Source of the DNA: Boothiomyces macroporosus
Taxonomy: Eukaryota > Chytridiomycota > Chytridiomycetes > Rhizophydiales > Terramycetaceae
NCBI GenBank assembly: GCA_027604185.1
Contig: JADGKB010000132.1
Location: forward strand, 1-33,441
Reading direction: 5' to 3'
DNA: 33,441 nucleotides
The notes beneath the pieces are model-generated. The model was not told the DNA's origin. It searched no databases and saw only the letters and a program-made list of their open reading frames with translations. The translations under genes and the position numbers were made by a program. Shown here one piece after another: positions 2,229 to 31,450 of the stretch; position 1 is the first letter of the stretch; every line of letters begins with the position of its first letter.

Positions 2229-5200
2229 ATGTCTTGGTTTGACCCCAACCAAATCAAATCCAGCATCGGATCAATCGCACAGAATTTGGGGAATATGATT
2301 GACGACCCGGATATCAAACAGCTTTCTGATAATTTATCCGCCAAAGAGAAAGAATTGGAAGAAACACAAAAAGAGCTGGAGCATTATAAAGCACGAGAGG
2401 AAGAGCTGAATAATTTACTCACAAAGCTAAAGACCCACGCTGCTCAAAAGATCAAGAAACTGGTTCAAGCAAACGAAGAACTCAGTAAGCAAATAAACCC
2501 AGATACCAACTATGGAGAAATTATACATGAAAACACTATTCTGAAGGAACAGAATCAAGAGTTGAAGGAGAAGCTAGCTTACTCTCATAATGAGTATTCT
2601 GAAGTGGAGCAGTTGAAGATTCGAGTTCAAAAACTGGAAAGAGAGAATCAAGATTTGGAAGACGAATCAGTACGATTGCAACAAATGCTGCAGAATCAAA
2701 ATAACCAGGAGTCAGCGGTTCACTATGAAGAGCTTTCCGAGCAAGTGAAATTATTGAAGCAGGAACTTGCTAGTTTGCATGAAGAGCATGAACGAGTTGT
2801 TGAGCAATTTGTAGAGAAATCAACACTGGTGGAACAACAAGAGGGAATCATTGAAGAGCGCACTAGGCAGATGGAAGAGTTACTTGCCAACAATGAACAC
2901 AACGAATCGCTTAAAACAGAACAGCTGGAATTGCAATCAACAGTAGATAAACTAACTGATTTATGCGAAAAATTAAAGGCAAAGAATGCCAAAGACGCAG
3001 AGGAATATTCAAGTACAATTGAAACGTTGAATAACGAACAGAAAAAGTTTGAAGGTTTAGCTAATGAAAACGAAATATTGAAAACAAAAATCAGTACCTT
3101 AGAATCAGAGTTGCAGGGATCCACTACCCAAAGTTTGGATAACAAACAGTCCGAGATTGACCAACTACACGCGAATATATCGGAATTAAACGAAACTATA
3201 ATCTTGCTTGAAGCAGAAGTACAAGAATTGCAGAAACCAAAAGATAATAGCGAACAAATAGGGAATCATGAATTGGAAGAGTTGAAGCGGGAATTAAAAG
3301 TAAAGGTTGATGAATTGAAACAGCAAAAATTGATTAATGATAAAACAAATTCGGAAATGAACCATCTACGGGATGAATTACAAACCACACAAGGAGTCCT
3401 TGACACTTTTGAAGTAGAAACCAATAATCTACAGGATGAGCTGGATAAGGCAAATCGAGATTTATTGGAATTGAACAAGAAGTTGCAAAGAAAAGAAGCT
3501 AATACTTTTGCTGAAAATGAAGAATTGAAAAAATTGAAAGTGTCTTATTCGGAACTTGAAACTAAATACAATAATACGATAAAAAGCCTTGAGAAGGCTG
3601 AACAAAAATTATCGAGTTTTGTGGAATTGACAAACTTGAACGATGTGTTGCAATTTGAAATTCAGGAGCTTCAAGCACAAATCCAAACACTTAATGAGAA
3701 CTTGTCTCAATCTCAAGATGAGATTCATCAACTGAAGACTGCCCTATCTCAATCCCAGGAAGAAATCCAGACCCTTAGAGATGGAGTAAGCATTCAAGAC
3801 AAAACTTCAGAGGAGGTTACAGCATTGACAGCGCAATTAGAAGATTTGCAAATTTCAAGTCAACTAGCTGCCCAAGAAAAGTCAAATGCCGAAGCCCAAG
3901 CTGCAAATTTGGAAGAAAAGCTACACAACGCTATGTTGGAAATCGATCATATCAAAGAGTCTTCTAGAGAGGAAGTTCTTGCAATTACCCAAATGCTTGA
4001 CCAGGTTCAACAAGAATTGGATTATGCCAGACAATCTGCAGACAAACAAATACATCAGTTAAGTTCAGTTCAAGCTCAAGAAACATTGGATTTGAAAGCG
4101 AAATGTGAAAGCCTGGAAGCTGAAATTCATAGATTATCCGAATTTGAAAACATGGCAACTGATTTTAAACTCCAAATCAGTACTTTGGAGGAAAATATTT
4201 CTCAATATGTGAGTGAACTCACAAAGCTTAATGAAGAAAATGCCGCACTTGACCATGCTAGGTTTGAATTGGAAAATAAGATTCATTTATTGAATCAGAA
4301 TAATGGTAATTTCATAAGTAACTTAGACAAAATCCAAAAATTGGTCGCCGAGGTGGAAACATACAGATTGGAAAACGAAAAATTGAAACTGGAATTGGAA
4401 AATTCAAAGGGTAAATAATATTAAAATAGAAATGGAACAACAATTAATAAGTTTACAATCTCAGGTGGAAGACTATAAATTGCAGTGTGCTGAGCTCGCT
4501 GGCAAAGTGGCTACCCACAGTGAAGGACTGAATGAAAGTCTTCAATTACAAGCTGATGAATATCAAAAGGAAATTCAACATTTGAAAGAGCAGCTCGATA
4601 ATAAGAAAGCCACCAATGATTTCGATCCCAACTCCTTCACAGAATTACAAACCGAATTGCAAGAGTACAAGCTGCAATGCCAACAACTGTCAAATTCACT
4701 ATCTGAATTAAACTCTTTGGTTGAAAACTTGCACCAAGAGAATGCTGCCCTCGATCAAGAACGAACTGCTCTTGCTGATAAATTATCCCAATTCAAAGTT
4801 GCAGTTGGTGCTAAAGTGAAAGCAGAGATGGAAGAATCAGAGCGGTTGAGAAATTTGCTGAATCATGTCAGTCAAGAAAAGGATACCCTAGAATTACAAA
4901 CAAGAGAACTGACAGAAGCACTTGCTTCAAGACAGGCAAATACCGACGAAGTGCTGGAAATAGCAAGGCTGAATCAATATATTGCAACATTGACAGAAAA
5001 AGCCCAGAAAGATGCAAATGAGGTAGCCAGGCTGCGTGAATTTTTGATTGAAGTTGAAGATAATTCCACTAGAGAAGCGCTACAAATGCAAGCCACGATT
5101 GATGAATACCGACAACAAATTGATAGTTTGGAAAAGGAACGAGAGCAATGGGAATCTGTTGTCGCACAAGACCAGGAAATCCGTGAATCTGAAAATGAAT

Positions 5201-6026
5201 TGTTAATTGATACTAAGCGCCAACTTGTTGAAGCGTTTGCTCAGATCACCAGTTTGCAACAGAAAGCTGAGCAAGATTCTAAATCTATTGAAAAGCTTCA
5301 ACTTGTATTGGAACAATTTGAAAAAAGTGATCGAGATTTAATCCTAGCTAAAGAATCTGAAATTGAAGAAGCAATTCGAACATTGAAAAACTCTGTTACA
5401 GTATTGGAGGTATCTTGTAAACAATTTGAAGAAAGAGCGCTTTTTGCAGAGGTAAATGCTGACCTTATTACAGAGCGAACTTGAGCACTTGCAATCAAGC
5501 ATAAAAGAAACCCAAAAGTTGAAGCAGGATCTAGAACAAAAAACTCTGCTTGTGGGACAATTGAGACATGATGTAGTGCAGTTACAGACCCACTTGTCCG
5601 AGGCTATGAGAAGAATGAAAAATGGCTCTGATGAAGACTCTGTGGATCGGTAGTCTCTTGATTGATTATAGAAAACTAGTGTCAAACTTGATTATCGGGT
5701 TCATGACTGCTCCACACGGCGACAGAAAGAGATACGAAATCTTGTCTTTAATGTCATCTATTCTGAAGCTGAATGACGAAGAAAAGGCAAAAGTTGGGCT
5801 AATAAGGCCAGTCGGTGTACCAAGCCCTAGACAATCTCAACCTGGTCAGGCAGAAAACTTTATGGATATGTGGATTACATTCCTGGTCTCTGAAACAAAT
5901 AAAGATGGCCCACCTGCTACCCCTACATCCAACAACATAGCCTCTCTCCCAAGTCCTGTAGCACCAAATGCCAAGGATGACACTACAAATGGAAACAGTG
6001 AAGGCAAGAAGGGCTGGTTGTGGTAG
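2229..6026 (+). CDS. Coiled-coil golgin with C-terminal GRAB domain (Rud3/GMAP-210 type)
   Basis: A Golgi tether of about 1,244 residues. Exons: 2229-4410, 4430-5451, 5474-5649, 5672-6026; introns of 19, 22 and 22 nt. All junctions restore frame, and total length is divisible by three. The N-terminus (MSWFDPNQIKSSIGSIAQNL) looks like the amphipathic membrane-curvature helix of GMAP-210 relatives, so I start at 2229 rather than at the in-frame ATG 2178. About 1,000 residues of uninterrupted Glu/Gln/Leu-rich coiled coil follow. Residues about 1124-1171 (VDRKLVSNLIIGFM, then HGDRKRYEILSLM and EEKAKVGL) match the GRAB (GRIP-related Arf-binding) domain of Rud3 and GMAP-210, which binds Arf1-GTP at the cis-Golgi. 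The third intron lies inside this domain, and removing it restores the family's VDR(K/Q)LV sequence. The tail is Pro/Ser/Thr rich. AATAAA lies 9 nt after the stop. Confidence 0.85.
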
Positions 6027-6207
6027 ATTCAAAACAATAAACATATAATTATTTGATCCACGTTCGAGATCACATCCTCTGGTGATCAGTAATCACGTAA
6101 TCTCTGCAATTGCTGTTTTTTCTTTACCCATGTGAAATTGATCGAAATAGGACTACGCCACTGGCAACTGTCCCATTACCACGAGGATCACTGAAAAAAA
6201 AGTTTGA

Positions 6208-8601
6208 ATGTTACGAGCTTTAGCTTCAAAAAAAATCGTAGCAGCTACGGGATTAATAGGTGTAACCTCATATTTATACTTTAATGAAAATGACAGCAAA
6301 GAAATTGCTTCAGCGCTGGCAACATCACGACTTTCAGCAGAGGCGTTAGCGAAAACAGTTGAAAACACTTCTTGGCTGCCTCCAAGTCGGCTAGAAATGA
6401 TTCAGAAACTTAAAGGACTCTCGTCCGATGGAAAGAAATTGGCCGATGAAGATCAAGAATTCGATCTTTTAATTATTGGTGGTGGTGCTACTGGAGCTGG
6501 TTGCACACTAGATGCCGCAACTAGAGGACTTAAAACCGCCTTGGTCGAACGAGACGATTTTGCGTCGGGTATATTTTTACTAATCCAGGAACATCATCTC
6601 GAAGTACTAAATTGATTCACGGTGGTGTGAGATACCTGGAAAAGGCTTTTTTGGAACTGGATTATGAGCAATACAAGTTGGTTAGAGAAGCTTTACATGA
6701 AAGAGGTATTTTTGTCGATTTATATCAGGATCCTTCATGCACATCGCGCCTTATCTGGCACACGAATTACCAATCATGTTGCCACTAACAATTTGGTGGA
6801 AGATTCCATATTACTGGGTTGGAGCCAAAGTATATGACTTGCTTGCAGGAAGCAAGGGTCTTACTCATTCATACTTTTTGACAAAAGCTAGAGCTTTGGA
6901 AGCGTTCCCAATGTTACAAAAAGACAAGATCAAAGGCGCTATTATTTATTACGATGGTAAGTCTATTTAATTTGTAGGAGCTCATAATGATTCCAGAATG
7001 AACGTCGCGCTAGCATTAACTGCTGTCCAACATGGAGCAACTGTTGCCAATCACGTAGAAGTCGTGCAGCTCCACAAAAAACCTAGAGTCACATTAAAAG
7101 GACAAAAGGGACTTGGAGATGAAGAGATTTGTGCAGCGACTGTCCGTGACACTTTGACTGGAGAAACTTGGACTGTCAAAACAAAGGGTGTTATCAATGC
7201 CACAGGGCCGTTTTGCGACGGAATCAGAAAATTAGATACTGGTATTGAGACAAAGGAAATTGTAGCTCCATCTGCTGGTGTTCATGTTGTTTTGCCTTCC
7301 TACTTTTCTCCAAGAAATATGGGGTTAATCGATCCAAACACTAGTGATGGTCGTGTAATTTTCTTTTTGCCATGGCAAGGATCAGTTATCGCTGGGACGA
7401 CCGACTCGCCAACAACTGTAGAGGCTAACCCAGTTCCAGGGGACGCAGATATTAACTGGATTTTGAAAGAAGTTGGAAACTATTTATCACCTGGTAATTT
7501 ACAACTAATTAGATATTAAACTCCGACGTGGTGACGTACAGGCAGCTTGGTCAGGCATTAGACCGCTAGTTCGTGATCCTGCCGCTAAAAACACTGAATC
7601 TTTGGTCAGAAATCATATGTTGAACGTTTCTCCATCTGGACTTGTCACAATGGCTGGAGGAAAATGGACTACCTATCGTGCCATGGCAGAAGAAACCATT
7701 GATAAAGCAATTGAAGTATTTGGTAAGGGTATTTTTAACCTTAGACCTCAAACCCACTGGACCATGTGTTACAACCGAAACCAAGCTTATTGGAAGCAAT
7801 CACTGGTCTCCAAACATGTTTATCAAACTTATTCAACACTTTGGCCTCGAAACGGAGGTTGCTCAGCATTTGGCAGAAAATTACGGCGACAGAGCATGGG
7901 CTGTTGCTGCATTGGCATCCCAAACTGGATCTCGATGGCCAATTTATGGCACAAGACTAGCAATGGGATATCCATATATCGAAGCTGAAGTGCGGTATGC
8001 TTGCCAGCGTGAATATGCCTGCACTGTAGAAGATGTAATTGCGAGAAGAACACGATTGAGTTTCTTGAACGCAAAAGCCGCTCAAGAAGCTATTCCTCGA
8101 ATTATTGAGATTATGGCATCTGAATTGGGATGGACTGCTGAAAGAAAGAAGAAGGAGTTTGCAGATGCTCAAAAGTTTCTTTTGTCAATGGGACTTTCCA
8201 TCAAGGATACTATTCAATTCCCTGCCGATGGAAAGAAGCCTGATACTCAAATTGATGAAGATCATGCAAGATTCTTTGCCAGAACACACTTTATGCCTCA
8301 TGAAATAGCAAAATACAAAGAAATCTTTAATTCGCTAGATTATGACAAGGATGGCTCGATTTCTCAGAAAGACTTTGGAAGAGCATTGTACAACCTTGGA
8401 GTCAAAATGAACGCAAAGGAATTGTCAAACATTATTTCCGAAGTGGATCTCAACAAATCTGGCTCTGTGGAGTTCAACGAATTTTTGGAAGTATTGGCGG
8501 CTGTGAAGGACATTCGCTCCAGATCAAAGTTTGCCAGAATCGTTGCTGAATACCAAGACAGAACCCAATTCCCTGCCGATCGCAGCGGAGGTGGCATTTA
8601 A
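6208..8601 (+). CDS. GUT2: Mitochondrial FAD-dependent glycerol-3-phosphate dehydrogenase with EF-hands
   Basis: Oxidises glycerol-3-phosphate to dihydroxyacetone phosphate at the inner mitochondrial membrane, passing electrons to ubiquinone. Six exons: 6208-6568, 6589-6705, 6729-6956, 6978-7493, 7513-7722, 7745-8601; introns of 20, 23, 21, 19 and 22 nt. The spliced product is 762 residues. The basic/hydrophobic N-terminus suits a mitochondrial presequence. The FAD-binding GGGATGAG is at 91-98, and removing intron 1 restores the family's [19 protein letters not shown]. The C-terminus carries two canonical EF-hands: [12 protein letters not shown] (about 676-687) and [12 protein letters not shown] (about 712-723). 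Calcium-binding EF-hands are the rule in animal GPD2 and absent from budding-yeast Gut2, so calcium activation is inferred. AATAAA lies 7 nt after the TAA. Confidence 0.93.
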
Positions 8602-8680
8602 TATCACTAATAAATTCAAATTTTCATTTTGAGAATATCAATTGGATAGCTTATCCATTTTTTCTCTTGAATCTCGAAAA

Positions 8681-9009: not shown

Positions 9010-9376
9010 TTAAACTCCTTGCATTTGTTCTTGCAGTTTCTTTCCGTAGTAAGCAGTTCCGACTAGCCCAACAACAGCTAGAGTGATAGGTGGGATTTTT
9101 CTAGTTCTAATTGCTCTTGGTGCCATAGCTCCAAGTAATAACACAGATGTCCCAGCAGCTAATTCAACCCCGTAATCCTTGTTTTTGTCAAGTAAATAGC
9201 TCCATTAGTGAATGATTACCCAGAGGTAGCGTACAGCGTACCGAAAGCAAGTCCGGCAATCAGCGATGGTCTGGATTTTGCTCTAGCGAATCCGGCGATA
9301 CCTCCAAGAGTGCCTAGGTTAAATGACTGATACATATTCCAGAGAATGCAAAGGCCAAGTGCGAGATTCCAGGCAT
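9010..9376 (-). CDS. TMEM14 family membrane protein, copy B (spliced)
   Basis: A second TMEM14 gene, invisible as a long ORF because two 20-nt introns break it. Exons on the minus strand: 9376-9334, 9313-9220 and 9199-9010; introns 9314-9333 and 9200-9219. Frame is kept at both junctions, and the product is 108 residues. The spliced protein reads through MPGISHLAFAFSGIC, TLGGIAGFARAKSRPSLIAG and YLLDKNKDYGVELAAGTSV to YYGKKLQEQMQGV. It aligns end to end with copy A, including LLLGAM(A/G)P. Intron 2 contains ACTAAT near its 3' end. Copy A has no introns, so the two differ in gene structure. Unlike many neighbours, its TAA stop does not overlap AATAAA. Confidence 0.82.
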
Positions 9377-11442: not shown

Positions 11443-12335
11443 TTAGTTTGATAATACAGGGCCAATCAGGAAATAGCCTGAAAATGTTGTTGGTGCACTT
11501 GGTAATTCTACAACATTGTTTCCAATCACCTGGACACCTGTGAGTTTAATTTTAACTTTTTGGTTTGCAAATGACGGATCAATAGTCCAGAGAGTATAAT
11601 TCAACGGATGATCTGGACCAAGCAAAGTATCATTTGCAAACGGTGTAGCAGCAGTCAACACTCTGGTAATCAAGTTCCCTTGTGCATTGTATACATCGAC
11701 ATGGAAATTGGTAGGTTGGAATCCAGTTGGTAATACTTCAAGTCTAATTCTATATTGCTTGTTTGGTAACCAGTACGATCCTTGCAGTGGTGAGTACAAT
11801 GTAATTTGCTGAATGTCTGGTAATGGCTGAGTATTCTTGAAAATCAACATTGGAGAAGAGCCTTTAACCAAGTTCCCGTCAGCATCAATTGCACTCATTG
11901 AAAGCGAGTAATACCCAGATTGGAAATTGGACAAATTGTCAATGGTGATTGAATGCGTAATGGCAACAAAATTACCGTCGTTCTTTGGGACTGAAGGCAA
12001 TAAATCCACTTTTTGCCCAGTAGCAAATCCATAGCTCATAAATAGAGTTTGCAAACCATTTGGAAATACTGCAGTCTTGTCCTTTGGCGGAAAAGTCTTT
12101 TGTCCATTGAACTGGCATTGTCCTCCCAAATTCACTGCTGGCACTCTATCACCGCCTCCATCAGTCTGTAAAGCACAAGAATCCCATTCCCAACGAAAAG
12201 TCTACATTAAAAATAGGTTACAATTGACTTTGTTGTAGTTACATCAATTTCAGAGAATGCGCTGTAAGTATCTGCACTGATATAGAAATTGGAGGTAGTA
12301 GCTAGTACGCTAGCTGCCAATGCAAGGAATTTCAT
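11443..12335 (-). CDS. Secreted Kre9/Knh1-like cell-surface protein, paralogue 1
   Basis: A 290-residue secreted protein. Exons: 12335-12222 and 12201-11443, with a 20-nt intron (12202-12221). Without splicing, the signal peptide (MKFLALAASVLA) is lost. After an N-terminal beta-rich region with a conserved Cys pair (WDSC...QCQF), a C-terminal domain (LYSPLQGSYWLPNKQYRIRL onward) has the Trp, polar turn and strand pattern of Kre9/Knh1 or Ser-Thr-rich GPI-anchored modules; this family call is tentative. It lacks an obvious GPI tail, ending GPVLSN. The stop overlaps AATAAA (11439-11444). The gene is one of a tandem pair with 12542-13475, same strand and collinear in sequence. Confidence 0.65.
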
Positions 12336-12541: not shown

Positions 12542-13475
12542 TTATGGTTTTACAGGACCTTTAATTAATACTACTTACCAATAAAAAAGATTCCAGATGT
12601 GGTTGTTGGAGGATCAGGCAGTGTTACAACTTTACCGCCAATATCTTGTACACCTGTAATCTTTAATCTAAACTGTCTATTCGCCAAATCGCTCGTTATA
12701 TTCCATAGCGTGTAATTCAGCATATGATTTGACCCTAGTAAGTCATCGTTGGCCAACGGCTGTGCATTTTCTAGTATTCTAGTAATTAATTGACCAGCAG
12801 GTGTGAGTAAATCAACGTGAAAGTGGTCTGGCTGATAGCCGCCTGGCGCAATCTCAAATCTAATTCTGTACTCTGCATTTGCCAACCAATAAGAGCCACC
12901 TAATGGAGAGTATAGATTGATCTTTTGTACTGGCGGTAGTGGATCTTTGTTTTTGAATGCGTAGATGGGAGACTGCCCTTTAACTGGGTTCCCGTCCGAA
13001 TCCTGTGCTGCTAATTGCAGAGTATAATACCCAGAAGGATACTGTTGAAGATTTGTCAAAGTTAACGAATGTGTTAGTGCTATAAAGTCCCCATTATTAC
13101 TGGCAACTGATGGTAAAAGGTTGATCTGAGTGGAACCAGTGAATCCAGCTGTTAGCGAGAGTGTAGTAAACCCACTTGAAAATACAGCGTTATTTGAAGA
13201 TGGCGAATGTGTGTCAACGCCGTTATACTGGCATTTCCCGTCTGATCCAACTGTCGCACCAACAACGCGATTCCCGCTTCCATCTACTTGACCGGCACAA
13301 GTATCCCAAGACCATGTAAACTGCACTTGATTAGTGTTTAACACGTCGATAACTATGTAAATGAAAAAGTACTAGCATACGGTTGGTATCCAACTGCACT
13401 AACGTAGAAACTGAATACTGGATGGCTAGGATCGTTTAGCGCTTGTGCTAGTTGTATAAAATAGTATATTCTCAT
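12542..13475 (-). CDS. Secreted Kre9/Knh1-like cell-surface protein, paralogue 2
   Basis: A 297-residue paralogue of the neighbouring gene. Exons: 13475-13373, 13352-12579 and 12558-12542; both introns are 20 nt. The simple ORF appears to stop at 12571, but that stop lies inside an intron. Splicing 12559-12578 gives the C-terminus FFIGPVKP, matching FLIGPVLSN of paralogue 1. Intron 1 removal joins FYVSAVGYQPYA to IIDVLNTNQVQFTWSWDTC, again collinear with paralogue 1. The first 12 residues (MRIYYFIQLAQA) are a short, weak signal peptide, so the 5' end is uncertain. AATAAA lies 2 nt after the TAA. The Kre9-like family call is tentative; paralogy is clear. Confidence 0.68.
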
Positions 13476-13749: not shown

Positions 13750-14216
13750 TTATTGCTTCTTTTTCTGGTCTCTAAACAGTAGATAGATATGAGGTCTTAA
13801 AGATGCGGACACTTGGTTCATTCCCTACGATTAGCATCATTTACCTTGCCAAAAATCAACCATCCAACAAGAACACTTTTCAAAACAAAATAGAATGGAA
13901 TAATCCCTAAAACTCCTCTGTTTTCAGTGATGGTCCATAACCCAAGCAACCCAAGATACAGTCCCCACTCTTTTAGCTCTTCTAAATCATCGGCACCATA
14001 AGCTGACAAGAATGCGTATACTGGGTAATAAAACGCAAGTATTCCTGTTGATACTGGAGCAAATATTTCAAAAAATATTGAAATTGAAAAGAAAAAGTAA
14101 GTAACCAAGCAAATATAAACCTTGTTAATCCTTGTAATTTGCTCAAGGTAGACCAGCAGGGAGAAGCGAGATAGGCGCATATTCGCTTGGTGAAGATAAG
14201 GCTGTAGTTGGTCCAT
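13750..14216 (-). CDS. YOP1: TB2/DP1/HVA22 ER-shaping protein (REEP/Yop1)
   Basis: A 148-residue reticulon-like membrane-curvature protein of tubular ER. Exons: 14216-13845 and 13824-13750; intron 13825-13844 is 20 nt. The unspliced frame ends falsely at 13818 inside the intron. Splicing supplies GMNQVSASLRPHIYLLFRDQ before the KKKQ end, corresponding to the family's (G)A..IY..FI.P tail. Hairpin hydrophobic segments lie at about 33-72 and 87-123, with the family's YP.Y motif (YYPVYAFLSA) and FYFVLKSVLVGWLIF. It is somewhat shorter than yeast Yop1 (180 residues). The stop is embedded in AATAAA (13749-13754). Confidence 0.82.
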
Positions 14217-14718: not shown

Positions 14719-15536
14719 ATGTATCTGGACCCGCAAATTAGAAACTGGGTATTTATACCAATCATGCTAGTGATGATTCTAGTCGGGATTTTAAGACATA
14801 ACGGGATGCAGCTTTTACAATCACCTCCAAAACCAGATATTAAGCAGCTGCGGGAATCCGCTTGTTTGCTTAGAGTGAGAACGTTTAGATCATTGGCAGG
14901 CGGTCTTGCTAAGCAAGCTTACGAAGGCCGCAAGGAATATTTTGTAAAAAACATGCACTCGTACTTAAAGAACCCTAATGCTGAAGCAACTAATCCAATG
15001 GCTGATCCTGGACAGATGGAAGGAACAATGGAAATGTAATTATTACTAATCAAGGATGAAAAAGAATATGATGATGATTGTTCCTCAAACATTAATCATG
15101 TCCTGGATTTCGTTCTTCTTTTCTGGTTTCATTCTAAGTACTTTATACTAATTCAAGCCAAATTACCATTCCCTCTGACACTCAGATTCAAAGCAATGTT
15201 GCAAAGCGGCATTGAAACTCAAGACATGGATGTAACTTGGGTGTCTTCCATTTCATGGTATTTCCTCAATTTGTTTGGTTTAAATTCTGTGTATACTCTA
15301 CTACTAGGCGATTCTTCAAGTATTCTAAACTGATATTAGCTGCCTCTGGGTCAATGGACATGATGCAGATGCAACAAATGAGTGGAAGCAATCCAATGGC
15401 GCAACCATCAGAAGCAATCAAGACTTTTAAAAGCGAAGCAGAATTTCTAGAATTACACAAGTATGTATTCAGATTTGAAGATATTGAAGACTTGGTGTTG
15501 GAAAAGTATGGCAAAAAAAACAAAAAGATGAAATAA
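14719..15536 (+). CDS. EMC3: ER membrane protein complex subunit 3
   Basis: A 252-residue subunit of the EMC insertase, homologous to Get1/YidC/Oxa1, that inserts transmembrane segments into the ER. Exons: 14719-15035, 15055-15137, 15158-15319, 15340-15536; introns of 19, 20 and 20 nt. The N-terminus YLDPQIRNWVFIPIMLVMIL, followed by VGILRH, matches family EMC3, so I start at 14719 rather than at the upstream in-frame ATGs. Splicing restores ETQDMDVTWVSSISWYFLN and FPLTLRFKAMLQ, both diagnostic. The Met-rich cytosolic loops (NPMADPGQMEG, MDMMQMQQMSG) are typical. The first and second introns contain ACTAAT. The stop is embedded in AATAAA (15532-15537). Confidence 0.92.
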
Positions 15537-16306: not shown

Positions 16307-18958
16307 TTGGATGGTTATGATTGGTCACTTCCAAGCAAGATCTGGGTTAAATATTCTGGCCAGATTTCTTCTCTATTGATGAACGTCACTCCAAGAACAA
16401 AGATTGACGGTGCCCACCAGCAAGGTGTGTACGTCAAAGCCGGTGCCAAACTATCAAGTTCGAAATCAATCTTTTTATACAAGCGATTCTACTTTTTCAT
16501 TGCATTCTGCATTCCATTCCTTGCTTCTGACTGGATCCCATCCACTTCAAGCGTAGGAATGTTCAAACAACGCATTGTCAATTCATTCGCTGCATTGGCC
16601 TACCTCCCATCCGGTTTGCAATTCGTTTCCTTGTTGCTGATTGCATTCATTGGTTACACTATGTCTACCATTGGCCGCCCATATCTCAAGTTTGCTTACA
16701 ACTGTTTCATTAAACCATTTTTAAAGAAGAAGAGCACTGGAATTGATTCCGACGAGCACCAGAGCCGTCTTGAAGAGTTTTACGAAGGACAAGCTGACGT
16801 TTATGATGTTACTCGCAGAAGGTATTCCATTCATTGATTATAGATTGCTCCGTGGAAGAAGCACCATGTTAAAGTTGTGTGCTGCCCAATTGCGTCAGCT
16901 GTATCCATGTGATTTTACTTCTGTCTTCAAGGGAGATAGAAACGGTTTATACACTAATGAAAAGGGCGAGCCAATGTCTCCTCCACTCTCTCCTGCATTC
17001 TTGTCTTGCGCTGGAAAGAGATTTGCTTGGATCGATATCGGTGGAGGTACTGGTGAAAACATTGAAAGAATGAACCAATTCTTCCCAATCTCCAACTTTG
17101 ACAGAGTCTACCTTGTCGATATCACCCCTTCTTTGTGTGAAATTGCTCGCAAGAGATTCGAAAGACTTGGATGGACTAACGTTAAAGTATTGTGTATGGA
17201 TGCTTCCAAATTTGAAGTTCCTGCTGAAGACGGTGACGATCTAGATATTGCTTTAATTACCATGTCCTACTCTTTGACCATGATTGAAACTTACTACCCT
17301 ATTATTGACCGTATCGCCCAAGTACTGGCTCCAACTGGTATCTTTGGTGTTGCAGATTTCTATGTTTCCGCTAAGCGCTCCGCAGACCCTACTCGTCAAC
17401 TTGGATGGTTCATGAGATGGTTCTGGGCCATCTGGTTCGATTCAGATAATGTTTACTTGTCTCCTGGTCGTCGTGAATATCTTGAACACAAATTCAAAAC
17501 GGTTAAAACTCTCAACTCCCTCAATAACTTTATTAAACCATTTGTAAAAATCCCATACTATGTTTGGATCGGTGCTCAAAAAGGTAGTTTAAAAAGTAAT
17601 TCTAGCTGCTCTTCCATCCCTAGCAAACTTTTCTCTTGACGGAACTGGTAACCCAGAAGCTGTTCCTGAAATCCCTGATGATGTTTCTGTTGTATCTGAT
17701 GATATGGATGCAGAAACTACTGCTGTTGAAAAGCCTGAAGTAAGAGAAGAATTACACGTATCTAGCAATCATGTTCACGGACAAGGATTGAGATGGAGAC
17801 AGCCATTCGATCCCAAACTTATTGACAGATTCAGCACTTATATTTACGCTTTCGCTTGGGAAGATCCTAGAGTTGATTTGCAATTCTTGGACCTTAAACC
17901 TGAAGATCACATGTTTGTTATTACCTCTGGAGGTTGCAATGTTTTAGAATATGCCATCAAAGTTGGTCCAAAGAGAATCCACTCTGTTGATTTGAACCCT
18001 TGCCAAAACCACATGCTTGAATTGAAACTTGCCGCTCTTACCTCTTTGTGCTATGAAGATTACTGGAAACTTTTAGGTGAAGGTTACATTAAAGATTTCC
18101 AAATTCTGCTCGATACTCACTTGTCCCCTAACCTATCTCCTTACGCTTACGATTTCTGGAAAAAGACTGGCAACTTCAAGAATTTGTTCAAGACTGGATG
18201 CTCTGGTCTTGCAGTTCGTGTATTCAACTTTGTCATTAAGCTCCGCCGATTACAGCCAATTGTAGAGCGCATGTGTACCGCCGATACTATTGAAGAACAA
18301 AACAAGATCTGGACTGAAGAATTACGTCCACACTTGTTGAACAAATGGTTGATTCGTATTTTGAACAATGACAGATTCTTGTGGGGAGCTTTGGGTGTTC
18401 CACCAGCACAAATGCAAATGTTGTTGGAAGAAGGTAGATTTTTTGCTAATCATAGGCTCTGCTCATGAATACTGTGTAAACACTTTTGATCCTGTAATAG
18501 CCAACTCCCACTTGAGGGATGACAACTACTTTTTCTACATGCCACTTATGCTTAAATATAACAAGGAAGCTACCGGAAACCCTGCTTATCTTACTGAAGA
18601 AGGCTACAACTTGTTGCTTGCTGAACCACACCGTATCGATGCCATCAAGATCCACACTGACTACATTATCAATGTTTTGAAGACTATTAACGATGGAGAA
18701 CTTACCAAAGTTATTCTCATGGACCATCTCGATTGGTTCTCTGAAGAAGACGCTAAAGCCGAAATTGCTGCTGTTCACCAAAAGATGGCTGTTGGAGGTT
18801 GTGTCTTTTGGAGATCTGCTGGTAAGGCGCCTTGGTATAATGTATTGTTTGAACAACAAGGATTTAAGGTCAAGGTCTGCCAAGTTCGTGAAGGAGAAAC
18901 TATGTTTATTGACAGAGTCAATATGTACGCTAGCTTCTGGATGGGTATTAAACAATAA
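16307..18958 (+). CDS. BTA1: Betaine-lipid (DGTS) synthase, fungal Bta1 type
   Basis: A bifunctional enzyme of 861 residues making the phosphorus-free lipid diacylglyceryl-trimethylhomoserine. Exons: 16307-16821, 16844-17583, 17606-18433, 18456-18958; all three introns are 22 nt. The order is that of fungal Bta1: N-terminal membrane segments, then a BtaB-like SAM N-methyltransferase (FAWIDIGGGTGENIERM, motif I around 238-242). After an acidic linker (about 430-470) comes a BtaA/DUF3419 3-amino-3-carboxypropyl transferase (STYIYAFAWEDPRVD, TSGGCN about 525-530, SVDLNPCQ). Removing intron 1 joins VTRR to RLLRGRSTML, a conserved stretch. In other fungi it is induced by phosphate limitation; I see no obvious CACGTG Pho4-type site, but palindromes lie upstream. 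An alternative start is Met at 16379. Confidence 0.93.
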
Positions 18959-19226: not shown

Positions 19227-20679
19227 ATGAATTCACTGTTATCGCGAGTAAGACAAACTGCACCGGCAGAACCATGGCAATCCATCCCTCAGCCAGTTCC
19301 ACTTTTAAATGTAGTAGCGCAGCCAATAGCCCCTGGGTCTTCCACAATCAGATACGTTTCAACTGGAATCACTCAAGAAGCAGAAGCTCTATTATCTCAG
19401 ATTCCAGCACCTCTTTATATCTGCGCTTTTGCCGGCTTTGGTAGAAGTGGAAAGAGTTACACTGCTTCGTTGATGAGATATCACATCACTGGAAATAAAG
19501 ATTACAAGGTAGATTGGATTTAATGTAGTTTGTCTCTGCACCCGGAAATGTACCGATCACACACGGTATCGACATGATGGTTTTTGAAAATCCAAACGGG
19601 CCAGGACATGTTGTATTCTTGGATTGTGAAGGAGGAGCCAACCACAACCAAACCGCTTTGCCATTTGTTATCGGCCTTGCAGCCAGGTTGGCGGCTAGAA
19701 TCTATGTATTTGAAAGAGGATGTTTCACTACTGCTGGGTTGGACACTGTTATGCAAGTTATCAACATGGGTCACGCAACCACCACTGGAAAGTCAACCAA
19801 TATCACACAGTCGGTGGTTTTGGTTGAAAACATGACCATCAACCAAGAAATTCCAAATGAAGATTTATTGAACGATCTTTTGAACGAAGTCGACGGAGAC
19901 GAAACAACAAACCGAGTTAGGAGCCTCATCAAACAAAAATTCTCTCTTGAATTCAACAAGTTACCATTTGACATGGGTGAAAATCAGATAGTGCACGCCG
20001 AAATATGCAAGGAGATGTCCAACATTCTTTTGGAAAACTTGATTCCATTTGAAGTTGGTGGTCTTGATGGTGACGGCAACTTGGTTGTGCAAATGGTCAA
20101 TGAATTAATCTCTCAAATTCGTGGAGGCGGTAATAGGTGATTAAATTTTAATCTAGATTCAACATGATTACTGCTACTGAAGCTTTGGTGAGCAATATGG
20201 CTTCTGAAGCTGCCAACACCGTTTGGGTGGAATTTGTCGCCAAAGTTCGTAAAGCTGGTAACCATCCTGTTCAAGTTAATGGAAGAAAGCACCTTCGTAC
20301 GATCATGAGAGAAGTGGAAGGGATCGCAACCGCATCGCAGAATGAATTAGAAGGGTTTATAGCAAGATTAGAGCCTGCAGAAGCTGCTGTTATTGGAAGA
20401 CAGATTTGGGAGAGAAATTATCACAATTTCCAGGCAGATCTGCGCGCAGCTTACCAGAGAAAAGCAGACGAGTTGGCCAAATACTCTCAATGGACAGACA
20501 GAGTAAACAGATGGATGCGGGAAATTGTGATTCAAATCATGACAGCCATTAGACAGTTTATCAGATTTGCCAGATTTTCTGCGACACTTATCTTGATGAG
20601 TAATTACTATATGTGGAAGAATGGAATTAATCTTGTTACTTCAATGGCTTCAGGAGCTGTTCAAGGTGTTTTTGCATGA
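19227..20679 (+). CDS. GBP/atlastin-like large GTPase
   Basis: A 470-residue dynamin-superfamily-type GTPase. Exons: 19227-19508, 19529-20136, 20157-20679; both introns are 20 nt, and the second uses the only GTG donor seen in the window. The P-loop GFGRSGKS is at about 70-77. A switch Thr lies in PITHGI (about 103-108), and G3 is DCEG (126-129), like the DTEG of guanylate-binding proteins. VVLVENMTI may occupy the G4 region but lacks the classical RD or NKxD. A helical C-terminal half ends in a hydrophobic stretch (SATLILMSNYYMW) that may be membrane-associated, as in atlastin. It is much shorter than fungal Sey1. Function is inferred as membrane fusion or remodelling. Confidence 0.7.
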
Positions 20680-24010: not shown

Positions 24011-26293
24011 TTATTCTAGTTCATTATTCTTCCTTTTCAAGTTCTTCACCAGTATAAAAATATCAAGAGCAAGACCATTACAAACTCCGCTTCCGTTCAG
24101 GAATGCTACATTTGGCTGCTTTTCCTCTTTTTGCAAACTTCCCAGATATAGCCAAATCAATTGCTTAACTCTCTCGCTTGATGTCTTGGAAACATACCAC
24201 TGTTCATCAATCTTCTTGCTACCATAAGTAAATGAGGCTTTGACAGAAACTGGAATATAGCCCAACTGGGTGGGCAAGATGATATCGTGATGGGCATTAT
24301 GACACACTCTATTGTGAATTACAGCCAAAGGCAGAGGCTGATCGACAAATGCCTCTGTTGAGGGATAGAATATTCCGCCAGATAAATCCAATCGAAACTT
24401 GTCCAGCAACAATTTAGATGAATCGCTATCTGCTCCACCAAAATCATAAAGGCGTGAGAAGGGTGCAAGAGTGTCGCCGGAGGTGGCCAAAAGTTTCCAT
24501 AAATAATACTTGACAGCCAGACTGGATGCAAACAAAGATTCATAGTAGATCCCAAGATTATACAGGTCCAACCTGCAAATATTATCAAACGAAAGAAACA
24601 AGTCCTTGATATCCAAGTTTTTGACAGCTTGATTGCAGTATTTTTTAACTTGTACTTTGATACTTTTCAATGTGTCCTTGGTAGTTGGTGTGGCATCAGG
24701 ATCTTCCCTCCAAACAAGTGTAAAAGGAAATAAATAGCAATTATCAAGATACGGGAAAATAAGAGACTGCTGAATAAGAAAGCTCCACTTGATTTTGGTT
24801 CCAGGTACACAGGAAGACTCATCTTTGATAGACCAGTGGACGCCGCAACATAATATGATATGAGAAAGATCTTCAACTGTAAAGTTTGTTAATGCCGTTG
24901 CCATTTCTTTGTAATATCCGATGGCTTCTGCTTCGTAATTTTGTATCAAATACTCTCTGTTTTGGCTATTAGTTTGACGTGTTACGAACCAAACTTGGTG
25001 GGCAATAAAGAGAAGTCGTGGTATTTGGTATGATGCGTAAACCAAGCAATTAATCAATTCTTCATCTCCAGCCATCCGAATAGGCTTTAACTTGCCCTGG
25101 TTATAATAATCGGTCATTTCAGTCCAGAATTTCCAGTAGTCATGCACCAATGGGGTTAAAGATAATACCTGAGGAATAATTGCCGACATTTCAGTGATTG
25201 AAATAATTTCTCCATTGTTGGTTCCAGTACAGATACAAATTGGTCGGTGTATGCCTGCGAGTTCCGTTAATAAAAGGGATAAGAAAGTGTGCATCTTTAC
25301 GCCATCTGCAGTATATTGTGATTGTATATTAGTCGATCGACAAAGGGTTTGAATCTCATCCAATAGAAACACTGGTGGAGTTTGGAAGCATTCTGACTTT
25401 TCATCAACCCCAAATGCGATATTCGTCAAACGGATATACTCGCCAATCATTCGATCCGTACTTGATATAATCCATTTGTTTTTCCACATTCTGAACTTTT
25501 CTTGTTTCCCAACAAAGGACTTCACATCCGGAAATTTCACGACACCTTCAAAATTGATACCATCAACTTGCTTCCCGTCAAATAACAAACACAGAAAGTA
25601 TATCATCAACCGAGGAAAGAATGACGTGATATCATCAATAGATTGGATAGCGGCGGATTGTTTTACAAAATCAAAAGAGAGTATGCGACCACAAGACCCG
25701 GCTTCTTCAATAAGCACATTCCTAAGCTCTTTCTTCATCTTTTGCATTCCCACCATTTTGAGTAAAAAAGTCTTTCCCATTCCCCGGCTTGTGCTGATAA
25801 TAATTGGCCAATACTTTTGACGCTTTGCTTGTCTGGTATTTGGATCAGGAAGAGTAATTCTGTTGATTTTTTTGACTAAATCGTCTCTTCCAAGAAGTGT
25901 CAAATATGATTCGCCGTTAGGTTCAAAGAACGGATATGATATTTTGTAACTTTTTGGATCAAAAGGAGGCAGCTCGATATCCATCAGGTCAGTTTCTGCT
26001 GTAGCAATACCTTGGGTTCTGCTTTTTTCAAATAGCAGGTTTCTCTGCTTTAGATTTTCTTGCTCCGTGAGCTGTTCTTCCTTCTTTCTGGCATGCCTTC
26101 TCTCTTCTATGAGCTCCTCTCTGAGCTGTTCTTCCTTCTTTCTGAGCCGGTCTTCCTTCTTTCTGAGATGTTCCTTATTTCCATACTCTTCCTTTTCTTC
26201 TTCGGACCAGTCCTTGAAAGGTTTTTTCAAGAGGAATTCAATTTCATCAATTTTGGAATTTATTTTGCTAATTTCAGCTGTTATTTCGTCCAT
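24011..26293 (-). CDS. Crinkler-like protein: P-loop NTPase fused to predicted REase-fold domain
   Basis: A 760-residue intronless protein. Residues 1-90 are a highly charged coiled-coil header (LRKKEDRLRKKEEQLREE). A STAND/AAA-like P-loop NTPase follows: Walker A as STSRGMGKT (167-175), Walker B as PVFLLDEIQ (307-315), and a sensor-like CTGTNNGE (355-362). The C-terminal about 120 residues fit a restriction-endonuclease fold: Glu585, Asp670 (HHDIILP) and a degenerate Ser683-x-Lys685 in VSVKAS. This architecture matches the eukaryotic Crinkler-RHS-type (CR) effectors described from oomycetes, chytrids and other fungi. Canonical LxLFLAK and secretion signals are absent, so effector versus intracellular role is open. 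The stop is embedded in AATAAA (24010-24015). Its start codon is only 55 bp from UBLCP1's, divergently. Confidence 0.68.
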   Translation of the reverse strand: MDEITAEISKINSKIDEIEFLLKKPFKDWSEEEKEEYGNKEHLRKKEDRLRKKEEQLREELIEERRHARKKEEQLTEQENLKQRNLLFEKSRTQGIATAETDLMDIELPPFDPKSYKISYPFFEPNGESYLTLLGRDDLVKKINRITLPDPNTRQAKRQKYWPIIISTSRGMGKTFLLKMVGMQKMKKELRNVLIEEAGSCGRILSFDFVKQSAAIQSIDDITSFFPRLMIYFLCLLFDGKQVDGINFEGVVKFPDVKSFVGKQEKFRMWKNKWIISSTDRMIGEYIRLTNIAFGVDEKSECFQTPPVFLLDEIQTLCRSTNIQSQYTADGVKMHTFLSLLLTELAGIHRPICICTGTNNGEIISITEMSAIIPQVLSLTPLVHDYWKFWTEMTDYYNQGKLKPIRMAGDEELINCLVYASYQIPRLLFIAHQVWFVTRQTNSQNREYLIQNYEAEAIGYYKEMATALTNFTVEDLSHIILCCGVHWSIKDESSCVPGTKIKWSFLIQQSLIFPYLDNCYLFPFTLVWREDPDATPTTKDTLKSIKVQVKKYCNQAVKNLDIKDLFLSFDNICRLDLYNLGIYYESLFASSLAVKYYLWKLLATSGDTLAPFSRLYDFGGADSDSSKLLLDKFRLDLSGGIFYPSTEAFVDQPLPLAVIHNRVCHNAHHDIILPTQLGYIPVSVKASFTYGSKKIDEQWYVSKTSSERVKQLIWLYLGSLQKEEKQPNVAFLNGSGVCNGLALDIFILVKNLKRKNNELE

Positions 26294-26348: not shown

Positions 26349-27338
26349 ATGACTGAAGCAAATCTCATTGCAAAGTGGAATGGAAAGGAATACAAATTAG
26401 ACTTTCAAGTAGATCAATCAATCAAGCAGTTAAAAGAGTATCTGTATGAGATTACCCAAGTATCTCCTTCAAAGCAGAAGTTGATTGGACTAGTAAAAGG
26501 AAAACTACCACCAGACGAGACTCTCATAAAAGACTTGAAGTTAAAAGCTACCCATCAGTTTATAATGATGGGTACGGTGGACGAAGATATTATCAAAGAT
26601 CAGAGTGATTTGGATGTTGTCAACGATTTAGATATTGATTACAGAACCACAACCAGTCCAATAAAAGATCCCGCAAACCAATTAGCGCTCCATAAAACTA
26701 TATCACAAGTACAATGTGTTAATATAGGCCAATATTCACCTAATTAATCCGCCAAAGCAGGGAAAGAAACTTTTGGTTCTTGACTTGGATTATACTTTAT
26801 TTGATTGTAAAAGCACTGCGAATCATATCATGCAATTAGCCAGACCAGGTTTGCACGAAATGTTGACTGTCTTGGCTCCATATTATGAATATTGTATTTG
26901 GTCTCAAACAAGCTGGAGATGGCTGGAAGCTAAAATCACAGAGTTGGGAATGTTGACTCATCCCGAATATCAAATCAGTTTTGTACTGGATATAACGTTC
27001 ATGTTTTCAATTACAGGAAAGAAAAAGCGACACCAAGTATCTTTAGTTAATCCAGGTCAAAGCTCTAGAGATTATATGGAACAAACTACCGCAGTTTGGA
27101 CCTCACAATACCATTCATGTGGATGATTTATCCCGCAACTTTGCCTTCAATCCGCAATCTGTAAGTCTAACTAATTCAGGGATTGAAAATTACTCCATTC
27201 AAGAATGCGCTCAGTAATACGGGAGATAAAGAGTTGTGGAAGCTTTGCAAGTACCTTTTACAGTTGACTTTGGTGGACGATTTCAAAACGATGGATCATC
27301 GCAACTGGAAAGAGTTTGACGGACCCGCTCCTCAGTAA
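26349..27338 (+). CDS. UBLCP1: Ubiquitin-like domain-containing CTD phosphatase 1
   Basis: A 310-residue nuclear proteasome phosphatase homologue (human 318). Exons: 26349-26708, 26728-27036, 27056-27160, 27180-27338; all three introns are 19 nt. Residues about 4-78 are the ubiquitin-like domain that binds proteasome subunit Rpn1. A HAD/FCP1-type phosphatase domain has the nucleophile motif LDLDYTLFD (Asp139, Asp141). Splicing restores HLINPPKQGKKLLVLDLDYT, VKALEIIWNKLPQFGPHNTI and HVDDLSRNFAFNPQSGLKI, each matching conserved blocks. A tempting 20-nt GT...AG segment at 26997-27016 is not spliced, because the unspliced protein aligns at full length. AATAAA lies about 20 nt after the stop. Confidence 0.92.
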
Positions 27339-29658: not shown

Positions 29659-29724
29659 GTATTTATGAGTCCAATTTGTATTTATGAGTCCAATTTGTAT
29701 TTAGGATTCCGATTTGTATTTATA
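29659..29724 (-). repeat. 19-bp tandem repeats carrying TATA-like elements upstream of SNG1
   Basis: Two exact copies (29659-29677 and 29678-29696, unit GTATTTATGAGTCCAATTT), a diverged third (29697-29715), and a partial fourth whose GTATTTATA gives a perfect TATAAATA on the minus strand (29717-29724). The array begins 6 bp from the SNG1 ATG, so changes in copy number would change the spacing between TATA and start. Confidence 0.8.
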
Positions 29725-29747
29725 GTACCTTGGCCGAAGAGGTTTCA

Positions 29748-29933
29748 TCACTTCGGTCGAAAAAAGCCGATGAATTGATTAAGTTGAAAATCCGCACAAT
29801 TAAACCGTTGCGTCTTGCGGTCAATAATTAGAATCAGATTTAATACATATACCATAGCTCTGTTAATGATAATTTTTGTCCACTGGTCCTGGTCTTCAAA
29901 GTTCAAATAATTGTTCAAGAAAACCATCACCAA
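29748..29933 (-). other. Unassigned ORF in SNG1-Gemin7 spacer
   Basis: A 61-codon ORF (MVMVFLNNYLNFEDQDQWTK onward) that is open for a further 14 codons upstream of the Met. Composition is protein-like, but no family, intron, TATA or matching polyadenylation context supports it. It may be a remnant or chance. Confidence 0.2.
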
Positions 29934-30015
29934 TTCTGGGGTAATAGAGCCATAGAATTAATCCAGCGAGCATAATTCTTTTTAAAAAATCTTTTTTCCT
30001 CAGCATAGACTTTTA

Positions 30016-30249
30016 ATGGATTTGCAGAGTCTGCATCACACTACCTTGGAATTCTGGTTGACTAGGACGAAATCGGGCCAAAAGGTGGAATTCTGCATGC
30101 TTGATGGGAACAAAATAGAAGGTATTTTGAGGGAAATCAACCCTGATCAGTCCCTTATAAACGTATCTGAATTAAATACTCCAATGGGGCAATACCCAGA
30201 AGCTCAGCTGCGGATGTCGGATATAAAATACATTAAATTTATCGAATAA
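30016..30249 (+). CDS. Gemin7-like Sm-fold subunit of the SMN complex
   Basis: A 77-residue Sm-like protein. The block QKVEFCMLDGNKIEGILREI followed by LNTPMGQYPEAQLRMSDI aligns with human Gemin7 (HQVSFTLHEGV...; QTPIGVQAEALLRCSDI). Gemin7 pairs with Gemin6 within the SMN complex that loads Sm rings on spliceosomal snRNAs. Here it comprises essentially only the Sm fold and lacks the N-terminal extension of the animal protein. No intron. The stop is embedded in AATAAA (30245-30250). Budding yeasts have largely lost this complex, while fission yeast and early fungi retain parts of it. Confidence 0.78.
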   Translation: MDLQSLHHTTLEFWLTRTKSGQKVEFCMLDGNKIEGILREINPDQSLINVSELNTPMGQYPEAQLRMSDIKYIKFIE

Positions 30250-30474
30250 ACTTGTAAATTGTCTGATTTTGTTTCTTGCATGTTATCATACTTCAAGGCG
30301 GAGGCAAATATCCCATTACTGTTTTTCAAATCAGACGAACCCATTCATTGGGACAGACGGACTTTTCAAAATGGCCATTCCGAACCACCAAGAGTAATTG
30401 GTTATTAGGATAATAGCTGTCGCATATATGGCAAGTTGATCCAAGCGTATTGAAAAAGTTGTTGACGCGTAACA

Positions 30475-31450
30475 ATGATTAGAGACGAGGATGAACTGGA
30501 TGATTTCAGCAAGGATTTACTAGAACGTGAAAAGAGTTTTAGACTGAAAAATAAACAAATTACCAGCCAAGTAACTCAAGCATTACAGAATGTTGAAACA
30601 GTTGTGGTAAGAGCATCCTAACACCAGCAAGAAGGAAAACAAAACTTGGAACGACCGAAACCACCTCCAAAACTAGAAATAGAGTAATCGATACTAACGT
30701 AGCTATGAGCTAAAAAAAAGACCCAGTTCAACATCAGTAATGAGTAAACAACGGACACTTGTAGATTTGGGCTCAGAAATCCCAAACGCTTCTGAAGAAA
30801 CACTGGGAACAGAGGCAACTACAAGATTCCTAAAAGCAAAACTAATCGTACTCCAGCAAGAACTAGACCGTCTAACAACCGAAAAGCAAACAAGAGTAAT
30901 TTCAGCTTATATAGACTACTACAATCACCAATCTACAAGAAAAACTAAAATTCATTGAACTAGAAAGACAGAAAGATTTGAAAAAGATCACCAGCCTAGA
31001 AACTGCAAATGAGAAATTAGTTAAGCTGAATACAAGTTTGCAAGAAGAGTTGAACAGTTGTAAAGCAGAGATTGGCAGTTTGAACAAGACTGTGACACAG
31101 ACTAGTAGGCAAACAAAGAGCACTGAGCAGGATGTGCATGCAAAGGATATAAAGCTGAACAGGTTGATGGATGAGATTGAGAGGTTAAAGAATGGTATGA
31201 GCATGATGGAAGCAGATTTTAAAGAAAAGATTCAAGTAGGGAAGCAGACTGCTGAAGACTTGTTTTGCGATAATAAGCGGTTGCAAAAACAAAAGGCTGA
31301 TTTGATTCTTGGGCTAAAGAAACAGAACCAGCTGATTGAAGTCCTGAAAAGACAAAAGGTACTGGTTGCCTAACTTAGATGCACATTGAAGCAGCAAAGA
31401 TCTTGCAGTTTACTGAAGAAGAGTTTTTGAAATCCTTAAACACAGAATAA
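30475..31450 (+). CDS. TEX9-like coiled-coil protein (ciliary/centriolar family)
   Basis: A 298-residue coiled-coil protein. Exons: 30475-30606, 30628-30683, 30703-30895, 30915-31358, 31379-31450; introns of 21, 19, 19 and 20 nt. The start DLLEREKSFRLKNKQI matches the TEX9 N-terminal motif. TEATTRFLKAKLIVLQQELD matches its central signature. The last splice joins KRQK to MHIEAAKILQFTEEEFLKSL, nearly identical to human TEX9. In animals TEX9 is a basal-body/centriolar-satellite-associated protein whose distribution follows cilia, so its presence suggests an organism with motile flagellated cells (inference). The stop is embedded in AATAAA (31446-31451). Confidence 0.88.

What the first reader, a model, noticed from the sequence alone, without database searches (positions are those of the whole stretch)
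4411..31378. All 29 placeable introns are only 19-23 nt long
By requiring protein continuity with known families I placed 29 introns in 11 genes: golgin (3), GUT2 (5), TMEM14-B (2), the Kre9-like pair (3), YOP1 (1), EMC3 (3), BTA1 (3), GBP-like (2), UBLCP1 (3), TEX9 (4). Lengths: eight of 19, twelve of 20, two of 21, six of 22 and one of 23 nt. None is longer. Such lengths are near the minimum known for spliceosomal introns (chlorarachniophyte nucleomorphs and some ciliates; microsporidian introns are also short). In a genome of moderate gene density this is unexpected and suggests a specialised spliceosome.
Basis: partly seen in the sequence, partly recalled or inferred. Interest (0 to 1): 0.92.

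Follow-up and report, generated by a model that had tools for sequence, protein, structure and literature searches.

The report
Genome-wide twenty-base introns, ordinary splicing machinery
Introns found in this small fungus-like genome are nearly all only 19 to 23 bases long, with the branch site at a fixed place, and yet the splicing parts that were found look ordinary, so it shows how little an intron needs in order to be cut out.

Summary
Confirmed. They are not chance: with no length preference GT-AG gives 139 introns of 19-23 nt in 263,621 bases, against 14-20 for five decoy boundary pairs. Frames across motif matches of 19-23 nt shift as removal predicts in 48 of 52 non-3n cases, without a clear excess at longer lengths. 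A whole-genome pattern has 455 matches against 151 reversed; of the 100 listed, 78 are 19-20 nt. The same signals at 50-80 nt show no excess. Geometry is strict: GTA...YTRAY-NN(N)-AG, modelled branch A at base 14-15, 5-6 nt before the end. About 13,000 are extrapolated. The 'specialised spliceosome' is not supported: U1, U2 and U6 keep canonical pairing sequences; Prp8, U2AF35, U2AF65, SF1 and Slu7 are present and conserved. One possible adaptation: U2AF65 RRM1 has lost two RNP1 aromatics; RRM2 keeps them. No RNA evidence; organism not identified; Stentor already shows tiny introns with most core splicing proteins.

The parts
   Evidence: the frame stays open if it is retained
4411..4429 (+). 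golgin intron, 19 nt
5452..5473 (+). golgin intron, 22 nt, joins coiled coil to GRAB segment; placed by hand
5650..5671 (+). golgin intron, 22 nt, inside GRAB domain
6569..6588 (+). GUT2 intron, 20 nt, junction in the conserved [12 protein letters not shown]
6706..6728 (+). GUT2 intron, 23 nt
6957..6977 (+). GUT2 intron, 21 nt
7494..7512 (+). GUT2 intron, 19 nt
7723..7744 (+). GUT2 intron, 22 nt
9200..9219 (-). TMEM14 intron, 20 nt
9314..9333 (-). TMEM14 intron, 20 nt
12202..12221 (-). intron in secreted-protein gene (reader: Kre9-like), 20 nt
   Evidence: no Pfam support
12559..12578 (-). intron in second Kre9-like gene, 20 nt; splicing gives the ending IGPVKP, parallel to the neighbour's IGPVLSN
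13353..13372 (-). intron in second Kre9-like gene, 20 nt
   Evidence: no Pfam support
13825..13844 (-). YOP1 intron, 20 nt, after the (sub-threshold) Pfam match
15036..15054 (+). EMC3 intron, 19 nt
15138..15157 (+). EMC3 intron, 20 nt
15320..15339 (+). EMC3 intron, 20 nt
16822..16843 (+). BTA1 intron, 22 nt
   Evidence: outside Pfam matches
17584..17605 (+). BTA1 intron, 22 nt
   Evidence: outside Pfam matches
18434..18455 (+). BTA1 intron, 22 nt, inside DUF3419
19509..19528 (+). GBP-like intron, 20 nt
   Evidence: Pfam GBP only weak, E 0.005, below cut-off
20137..20156 (+). GBP-like intron, 20 nt, starts GTG
26709..26727 (+). UBLCP1 intron, 19 nt
27037..27055 (+). UBLCP1 intron, 19 nt
27161..27179 (+). 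UBLCP1 intron, 19 nt
30607..30627 (+). TEX9-like intron, 21 nt
   Evidence: no Pfam match
30684..30702 (+). TEX9-like intron, 19 nt
30896..30914 (+). TEX9-like intron, 19 nt
31359..31378 (+). TEX9-like intron, 20 nt

Best explanation
These are genuine U2-type spliceosomal introns that have shrunk across the whole genome to a near-minimal module: a GTAANT-like start, 4-6 filler bases, branch site YTRAY, two or three bases, AG. The branch adenosine, as modelled from the motif, sits at intron base 14-15 and the last base follows 5-6 bases later. Lariat formation and exon joining are inferred to proceed with a canonical spliceosome: U1 and U6 pair with the 5' end, SF1 and then U2 with the branch site, U2AF35 with the AG. 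There is too little room between branch site and AG for U2AF65's two RRMs to lie on a pyrimidine tract there, so recognition most likely rests on SF1 and U2AF35 side by side, with U2AF65 as their bridge. Shown here: the introns' anatomy, their genome-wide nature, and the presence and conservation of the named parts. Inferred: that they are spliced, where branching happens, and the recognition model.
For: Length peak without length preference and decoy control. Frame test: 48 restored, 4 contiguous, 0 other at 19-23 nt against 12/32/13 at 61-120. 225 introns of 18-24 nt in 76 of 104 called genes, 167 of 225 with YTRAY. Genome-wide pattern 455 against 151, and no excess for a 50-80 nt class, 97 against 189. 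15 of 29 window junctions lie inside protein-family or structure alignments. Genes not used in training show the same: U2AF65 four introns of 19-20 nt plus an uncertain one of 21 near its start, SF1 three of 21-24, U2AF35 four of 19-21 (two placed by hand), Slu7 one of 20. snRNAs canonical. Proteins conserved.
Against: No RNA evidence exists here. 19 of 244 introns in the final model run are longer than 25 nt. In held-out U2AF65, U2AF35 and Slu7 such long calls removed conserved stretches, so I take the rest as artefacts, but did not check each. The frame test leaves a small surplus at 31-60 nt (9 restored against 5 other; 4 against 0 at the strictest cut-off). 13 of 225 called introns are multiples of three without an in-frame stop and could be coding. 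14 of the 29 window introns have no homology support. Introns in untranslated regions were not examined.
Confidence: 0.95

Rival explanations
1. The tiny introns are real but only a short-end class; a second class of ordinary 50-200 nt introns exists and is missed.
For: 19 of 244 final calls are 40-294 nt, some with good motif scores. Frame test at 31-60 nt: 9 restored against 5 other.
Against: Genome pattern with the same signals at 50-80 nt: 97 forward against 189 control. Frame test at 61-120 nt: 12 restored against 13 other. Branch site 6-15 nt from AG gives no excess above 23 nt. Long GT-AG calls (3.5 per 5 nt) are fewer than for the decoys, 7.6-9.0. In three held-out genes long calls swallow conserved stretches.
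Confidence: 0.04
2. The spliceosome is specialised for tiny introns, with U2AF65 relieved of polypyrimidine binding.
For: U2AF65 RRM1 RNP1 reads KEHCHVEF where human has KNFAFLEF, while RRM2 RNP1 (KGFAFCEY) is intact. Branch motif to AG leaves 2-3 nt. U2AF35 has F where fission yeast and human have W.
Against: All other parts examined look canonical. A passage of PMC2483917 says that most fungi lack a polypyrimidine tract anyway, so the change need not be linked to tiny introns. No relatives could be compared.
Confidence: 0.25
3. The segments are not introns but assembly indels, internal eliminated DNA or translational bypass sites.
For: These too would need removal for protein continuity.
Against: Asymmetric GT...branch site...AG signal, U2-complementary branch motif, presence throughout the genome.
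Confidence: 0.01

Closest known systems
Stentor coeruleus (heterotrich ciliate) tiny introns, PMC9505925 (section 2.1 and passages seen)
   Same: 8,806 uniform tiny introns, mostly GT-AG; fixed branch position; 5 nt tail; canonical U1, U2 and U6 pairing sequences; U2AF1, U2AF2, SF1 and Prp8 listed as found.
   Different: There 15-16 nt, branch A at base 10, no strong branch consensus, Slu7 and Prp18 listed as not found. Here 19-23 nt, branch A at 14-15, clear YTRAY, Slu7 present (Prp18 not searched).
Mikrocytid introns, PMC10245619 (passages seen)
   Same: Very short, uniform length, conserved sequence.
   Different: There 16-17 nt, 224 introns in M. mackini, 17-19 spliceosomal proteins. Here 19-23 nt and about 13,000 extrapolated; the full protein inventory was not counted.
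Chlorarachniophyte nucleomorph introns (18-21 bp as stated in PMC10245619)
   Same: Almost the same length range.
   Different: A relict endosymbiont nucleus; here a 15.2 Mb genome.
Branch-to-AG anchoring in Yarrowia, Trichomonas and Giardia, PMC2483917 (abstract and passages seen)
   Same: Branch motif at a fixed 2 or 4 nt before AG and no polypyrimidine tract.
   Different: Reported in intron-poor lineages, with rather long introns in Yarrowia; here in an intron-rich genome.
Short type B introns of Trichomonas vaginalis, PMC12316389 (passages seen)
   Same: Down to 23 nt, branch site close to the 3' end.
   Different: 63 introns in all, most of a longer type (39 of 56-196 nt); here a longer type is not seen.

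Membership tests
U2-type spliceosomal introns | GT-AG (rarely GC-AG) boundaries | tested here: met
   one hand-placed GC-AG of 21 nt in U2AF35
U2-type spliceosomal introns | branch site pairing with the U2 GUAGUA segment | tested here: met
   YTRAY in 167 of 225; U2 segment intact in both copies
U2-type spliceosomal introns | U1, U2, U6 snRNAs and Prp8 present | tested here: met
   (U1 0.7 bits under its gathering score)
U2-type spliceosomal introns | U5 and U4 snRNAs present | tested here: inconclusive
   U5 model rang nowhere, controls included; U4 not searched
U2-type spliceosomal introns | removed from mRNA as lariat | not testable with these tools
   no RNA data
heterotrich-type tiny introns | 15-16 nt | tested here: not met
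   18-24 nt, mode 20
heterotrich-type tiny introns | no strong branch consensus | tested here: not met
   YTRAY in 167 of 225
mikrocytid-type tiny introns | 16-17 nt | tested here: not met
mikrocytid-type tiny introns | reduced spliceosome | tested here: inconclusive
   five of five proteins searched were found; total inventory not counted
intron-poor genomes with anchored branch site | branch motif at fixed short distance from AG | tested here: met
   2-3 nt in 202 of 225
intron-poor genomes with anchored branch site | few introns | tested here: not met
   1.39 introns per kb of CDS, 76 of 104 called genes with at least one

The most novel reading that the evidence does not exclude
A canonical, human-like spliceosome works only on one fixed module in which the branch site abuts the 3' splice site. 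The 3' splice site is read by SF1 and U2AF35 alone, and U2AF65 has become a protein bridge whose RRM1 no longer needs RNA. The genome would thus be a natural record of which contacts of the early spliceosome can be dropped without losing any subunit.
Probability: 0.25. Interest if true: 0.85.

Novelty: new variant of a known kind. Interest (0 to 1): 0.65.

Why it matters
In the reports whose passages I saw, tiny introns belong to ciliates, a relict nucleus, mikrocytids and, in part, Trichomonas. Stentor already shows that tiny introns can go with most core splicing proteins. Here the same holds with Slu7 present, with a clear branch motif held 2-3 nt from AG, and in an intron-rich genome, whereas such anchoring was reported for intron-poor genomes. 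It makes two questions testable: what the minimum distances are between 5' end, branch site and 3' end, and what U2AF65 does when there is no room for a tract. It also warns that gene finders with a minimum intron size above 20 would misread such a genome.

Tried and rejected
Plain GT...AG counts gave at most a faint excess. A stiff first gene model found one tiny intron in the window and five long gaps. Idea rejected: that second-step factors are lost because branch and AG are close; Slu7 is present. Closeness to one Prp8 structure (9r8v) as a lead to kinship came to nothing; over 606 aa it scores like human. Organism: 18S search did not complete; homologue search was off; no database of eukaryote genomes was on hand. 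U2AF35 aligns well with fission yeast U2AF23, which fits a fungal relative but proves nothing. Term searches in four papers on early fungi (PMC10608142, PMC8371127, PMC5701793, PMC10406608) found no text on intron length. Changed on checking: interest 0.70 to 0.65 and the two RRM1 readings by 0.05 each, because Stentor also keeps U2AF, SF1 and Prp8 and most fungi lack a pyrimidine tract.
Full report
Setting. The window is contig C132 of a eukaryote assembly of 15,203,306 bases in 216 contigs. I fetched 20 further pieces of 10 kb from contigs C1-C20; with the window and eight kinase loci this gives 263,621 bases for statistics. This is under 2% of the genome and not a random sample.

Observation. 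I wrote a gene finder that scores coding frame and allows GT-AG gaps of any length. With all lengths from 12 to 120 equally likely and no splice motif beyond GT and AG, 31 of 114 gaps fell at 19-23 nt while every other length got 0-3. Most of the tiny ones share a motif that was not put in: GTA at the start and a YTAAY-like pentamer 2-3 nt before AG. With motif learned and length still free (12-200), 102 of 170 fall at 19-23. With a length preference, 225 of 244 are 18-24 nt; these counts take genes scoring 12 or more. The remaining one, 5452-5473, follows from frame continuity and gives an unbroken golgin of 1,244 aa ending with the segment in which Pfam finds a GRAB domain.

More than chance. 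Decoys: replacing GT/AG by TG/GA, CA/TC, GA/TG, AG/GT or CT/AC gave 20, 14, 18, 18 and 16 gaps at 19-23 nt against 139 for GT/AG. The coding table in that call was trained on gene models that preferred short introns, which may favour GT/AG somewhat; one search does not have this weakness. Frame test: for every GTA...YTRAY-2/3-AG stretch with good coding on both sides (score at least 2 over 45 bases, same coding table) I asked whether the downstream frame is where removal would put it. For lengths not a multiple of three, restored, contiguous and other were 48, 4, 0 at 19-23 nt; 1, 3, 2 at 24-30; 9, 13, 5 at 31-60; 12, 32, 13 at 61-120. Cut-offs of 1 and 3 gave 76, 9, 2 and 20, 0, 0 at 19-23; at 31-60 they gave 14, 23, 12 and 4, 4, 0, so a small surplus there is not excluded. 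A branch motif 6-15 nt before AG gave 7, 12, 2 at 19-23 nt and no excess above that.

Genome-wide. The pattern GTAAKT-N0..30-CTAAY-NN-AG has 455 matches in the whole assembly; the reversed pattern has 151. The pattern fixes the last gap at 2 and so leaves out introns with 3. The tool listed 100 of the 455: 50 are 19 nt, 28 are 20, 3 are 21, 3 are 22 and the other 16 are spread from 15 to 45; a few of the listed ones are repeats in duplicated stretches. The same signals with a spacer of 35-65, total 50-80 nt, have 97 matches against 189 for the control, which also shows that the reversed pattern is a rough control. So no class of conventional length with these signals is visible. 225 introns in 263,621 bases extrapolate to about 13,000 in the genome. 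The pattern captures 5 of the 225, which with the excess gives a similar order.

Homology. In the spliced GUT2 all five junctions lie inside the alignment to a glycerol-3-phosphate dehydrogenase structure (3da1), one of them in the conserved [12 protein letters not shown]. EMC3's three and UBLCP1's three lie inside alignments to solved structures. Pfam covers both TMEM14 junctions and one of BTA1's three, and one golgin junction lies in GRAB. That is 15 of 29. Splicing raised the EMC3 family score from 52.7 for one open frame to 137.7 bits and the DUF3419 score from 250.9 to 419.8. Genes not used for training behave alike: U2AF65 has introns of 19, 20, 19, 19 nt and an uncertain one of 21 (GTT start) near its first codon, SF1 24, 22, 21, U2AF35 21 (GC-AG), 19, 19, 20 (the first two placed by hand), Slu7 one of 20 between two parts of its Pfam match; a 21 nt call in Slu7 is in frame without stop and so ambiguous. 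When length preference was removed for these genes the model chose some long gaps, and in U2AF65, U2AF35 and Slu7 these swallowed conserved stretches; in Slu7 a 78 nt gap did so even with the preference. This is why I regard the 19 long calls as artefacts, though I did not check each.

Anatomy. Of 225 introns, 196 have the modelled branch A at base 14 or 15 and 202 have it 5 or 6 nt before the last G. The position line printed is one too low; the spacing gives the true values. The donor is GTAANT-like with G at +5 in only 19%; the 3' end is TAG in about 69%. Bases between donor and branch site are 41% T against 27% in CDS, a weak T enrichment at most. 164 of 225 shift the frame if retained, 48 more carry an in-frame stop, 13 do neither.

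Machinery. U6, U1 and two U2 genes were found, with the U1 5' end AUACUUACCUG, U2 GUGUAGUAUCUGUUC and U6 UACAGAGA as in the family consensus. U5 gave nothing, but the model also rang in no control. Prp8 is conserved over the 1,196 aa read and matches human over 606 aa with about 1,214 bits. U2AF35 matches fission yeast U2AF23 over 190 aa with 294 bits (species recalled). SF1 keeps the tryptophan of its U2AF ligand motif, the helix-hairpin, the KH-QUA2 domain and zinc knuckles (some names recalled). U2AF65 keeps three RRMs. Slu7 is present. Two details stand out. RRM1 of U2AF65 has H-C-H where human has F-A-F in RNP1, while RRM2 is intact (that these phenylalanines stack on RNA is recalled). 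U2AF35 has F at the W that both human and fission yeast keep. Without relatives I cannot say whether these go with the introns, and PMC2483917 notes that most fungi lack a polypyrimidine tract.

How it most likely works. A gap of 2-3 nt between branch motif and AG puts SF1's and U2AF35's sites next to each other. The RRMs of U2AF65 cannot both lie between them; they may bind upstream or not at all. The rest of the pathway is inferred to be standard. The near-constant spacing suggests a ruler set by the minimum reach from the 5' end to the branch site and from there to AG; that is inference.

What is known. PMC9505925 (section 2.1 and passages) gives 15-16 nt for Stentor with branch A at base 10 and a 5 nt tail, and lists U2AF1, U2AF2, SF1 and Prp8 as found, Slu7 and Prp18 as not found. 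PMC10245619 (passages) gives 16-17 nt for mikrocytids, 18-21 for chlorarachniophyte nucleomorphs and 15-16 for heterotrichs. PMC2483917 (abstract and passages) reports branch motif anchored to AG in intron-poor lineages. PMC12316389 (passages) gives a 23 nt intron in Trichomonas. This genome differs from each in at least one point, so I call it a new variant of a known kind. Whether it is in print I could not settle, since most paper searches timed out.

Noticed in passing
G000 contigs C2, C10, C20, C65: Matches recur at constant offsets in one contig (about 42.6 kb in C2, 53.7 kb in C10, 45.1 kb in C20, 18.8 kb in C65), suggesting long direct duplications or haplotypes joined head to tail in assembly.
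   Followed up: no
L036 1481-1501: First intron of U2AF35 is a 21 nt GC-AG intron (GCAAGT start) after a 7-base first exon (hand-placed).
   Followed up: partly
L037 (U2AF65 gene): RRM1 RNP1 reads KEHCHVEF against human KNFAFLEF; RRM2 RNP1 intact. Possible relaxed RNA contact.
   Followed up: partly
window 29986-30249: Small protein with Gemin7 domain (Pfam E 1.3e-11), a part of the snRNP-assembly SMN complex (role recalled).
   Followed up: no
window 24011-26293: Open 760 aa frame without called introns; Pfam gives only a sub-threshold DnaA ATPase match.
   Followed up: no
window 31-1062 and 1484-2164: Two neighbouring proteins, one with sub-threshold chitin-binding and GH19 chitinase matches, one CAP, share a nearly identical cysteine-rich N-terminal domain (seen by eye).
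   Followed up: no
L030 and L031: Two diverged U2 snRNA genes that differ mostly in the 3' half.
   Followed up: no
window 8633-8989 and 9010-9376: Two TMEM14-like genes tail to tail; the minus one (Pfam match) has two tiny introns, the plus one (similar by eye, not tested) is an open frame.
   Followed up: no
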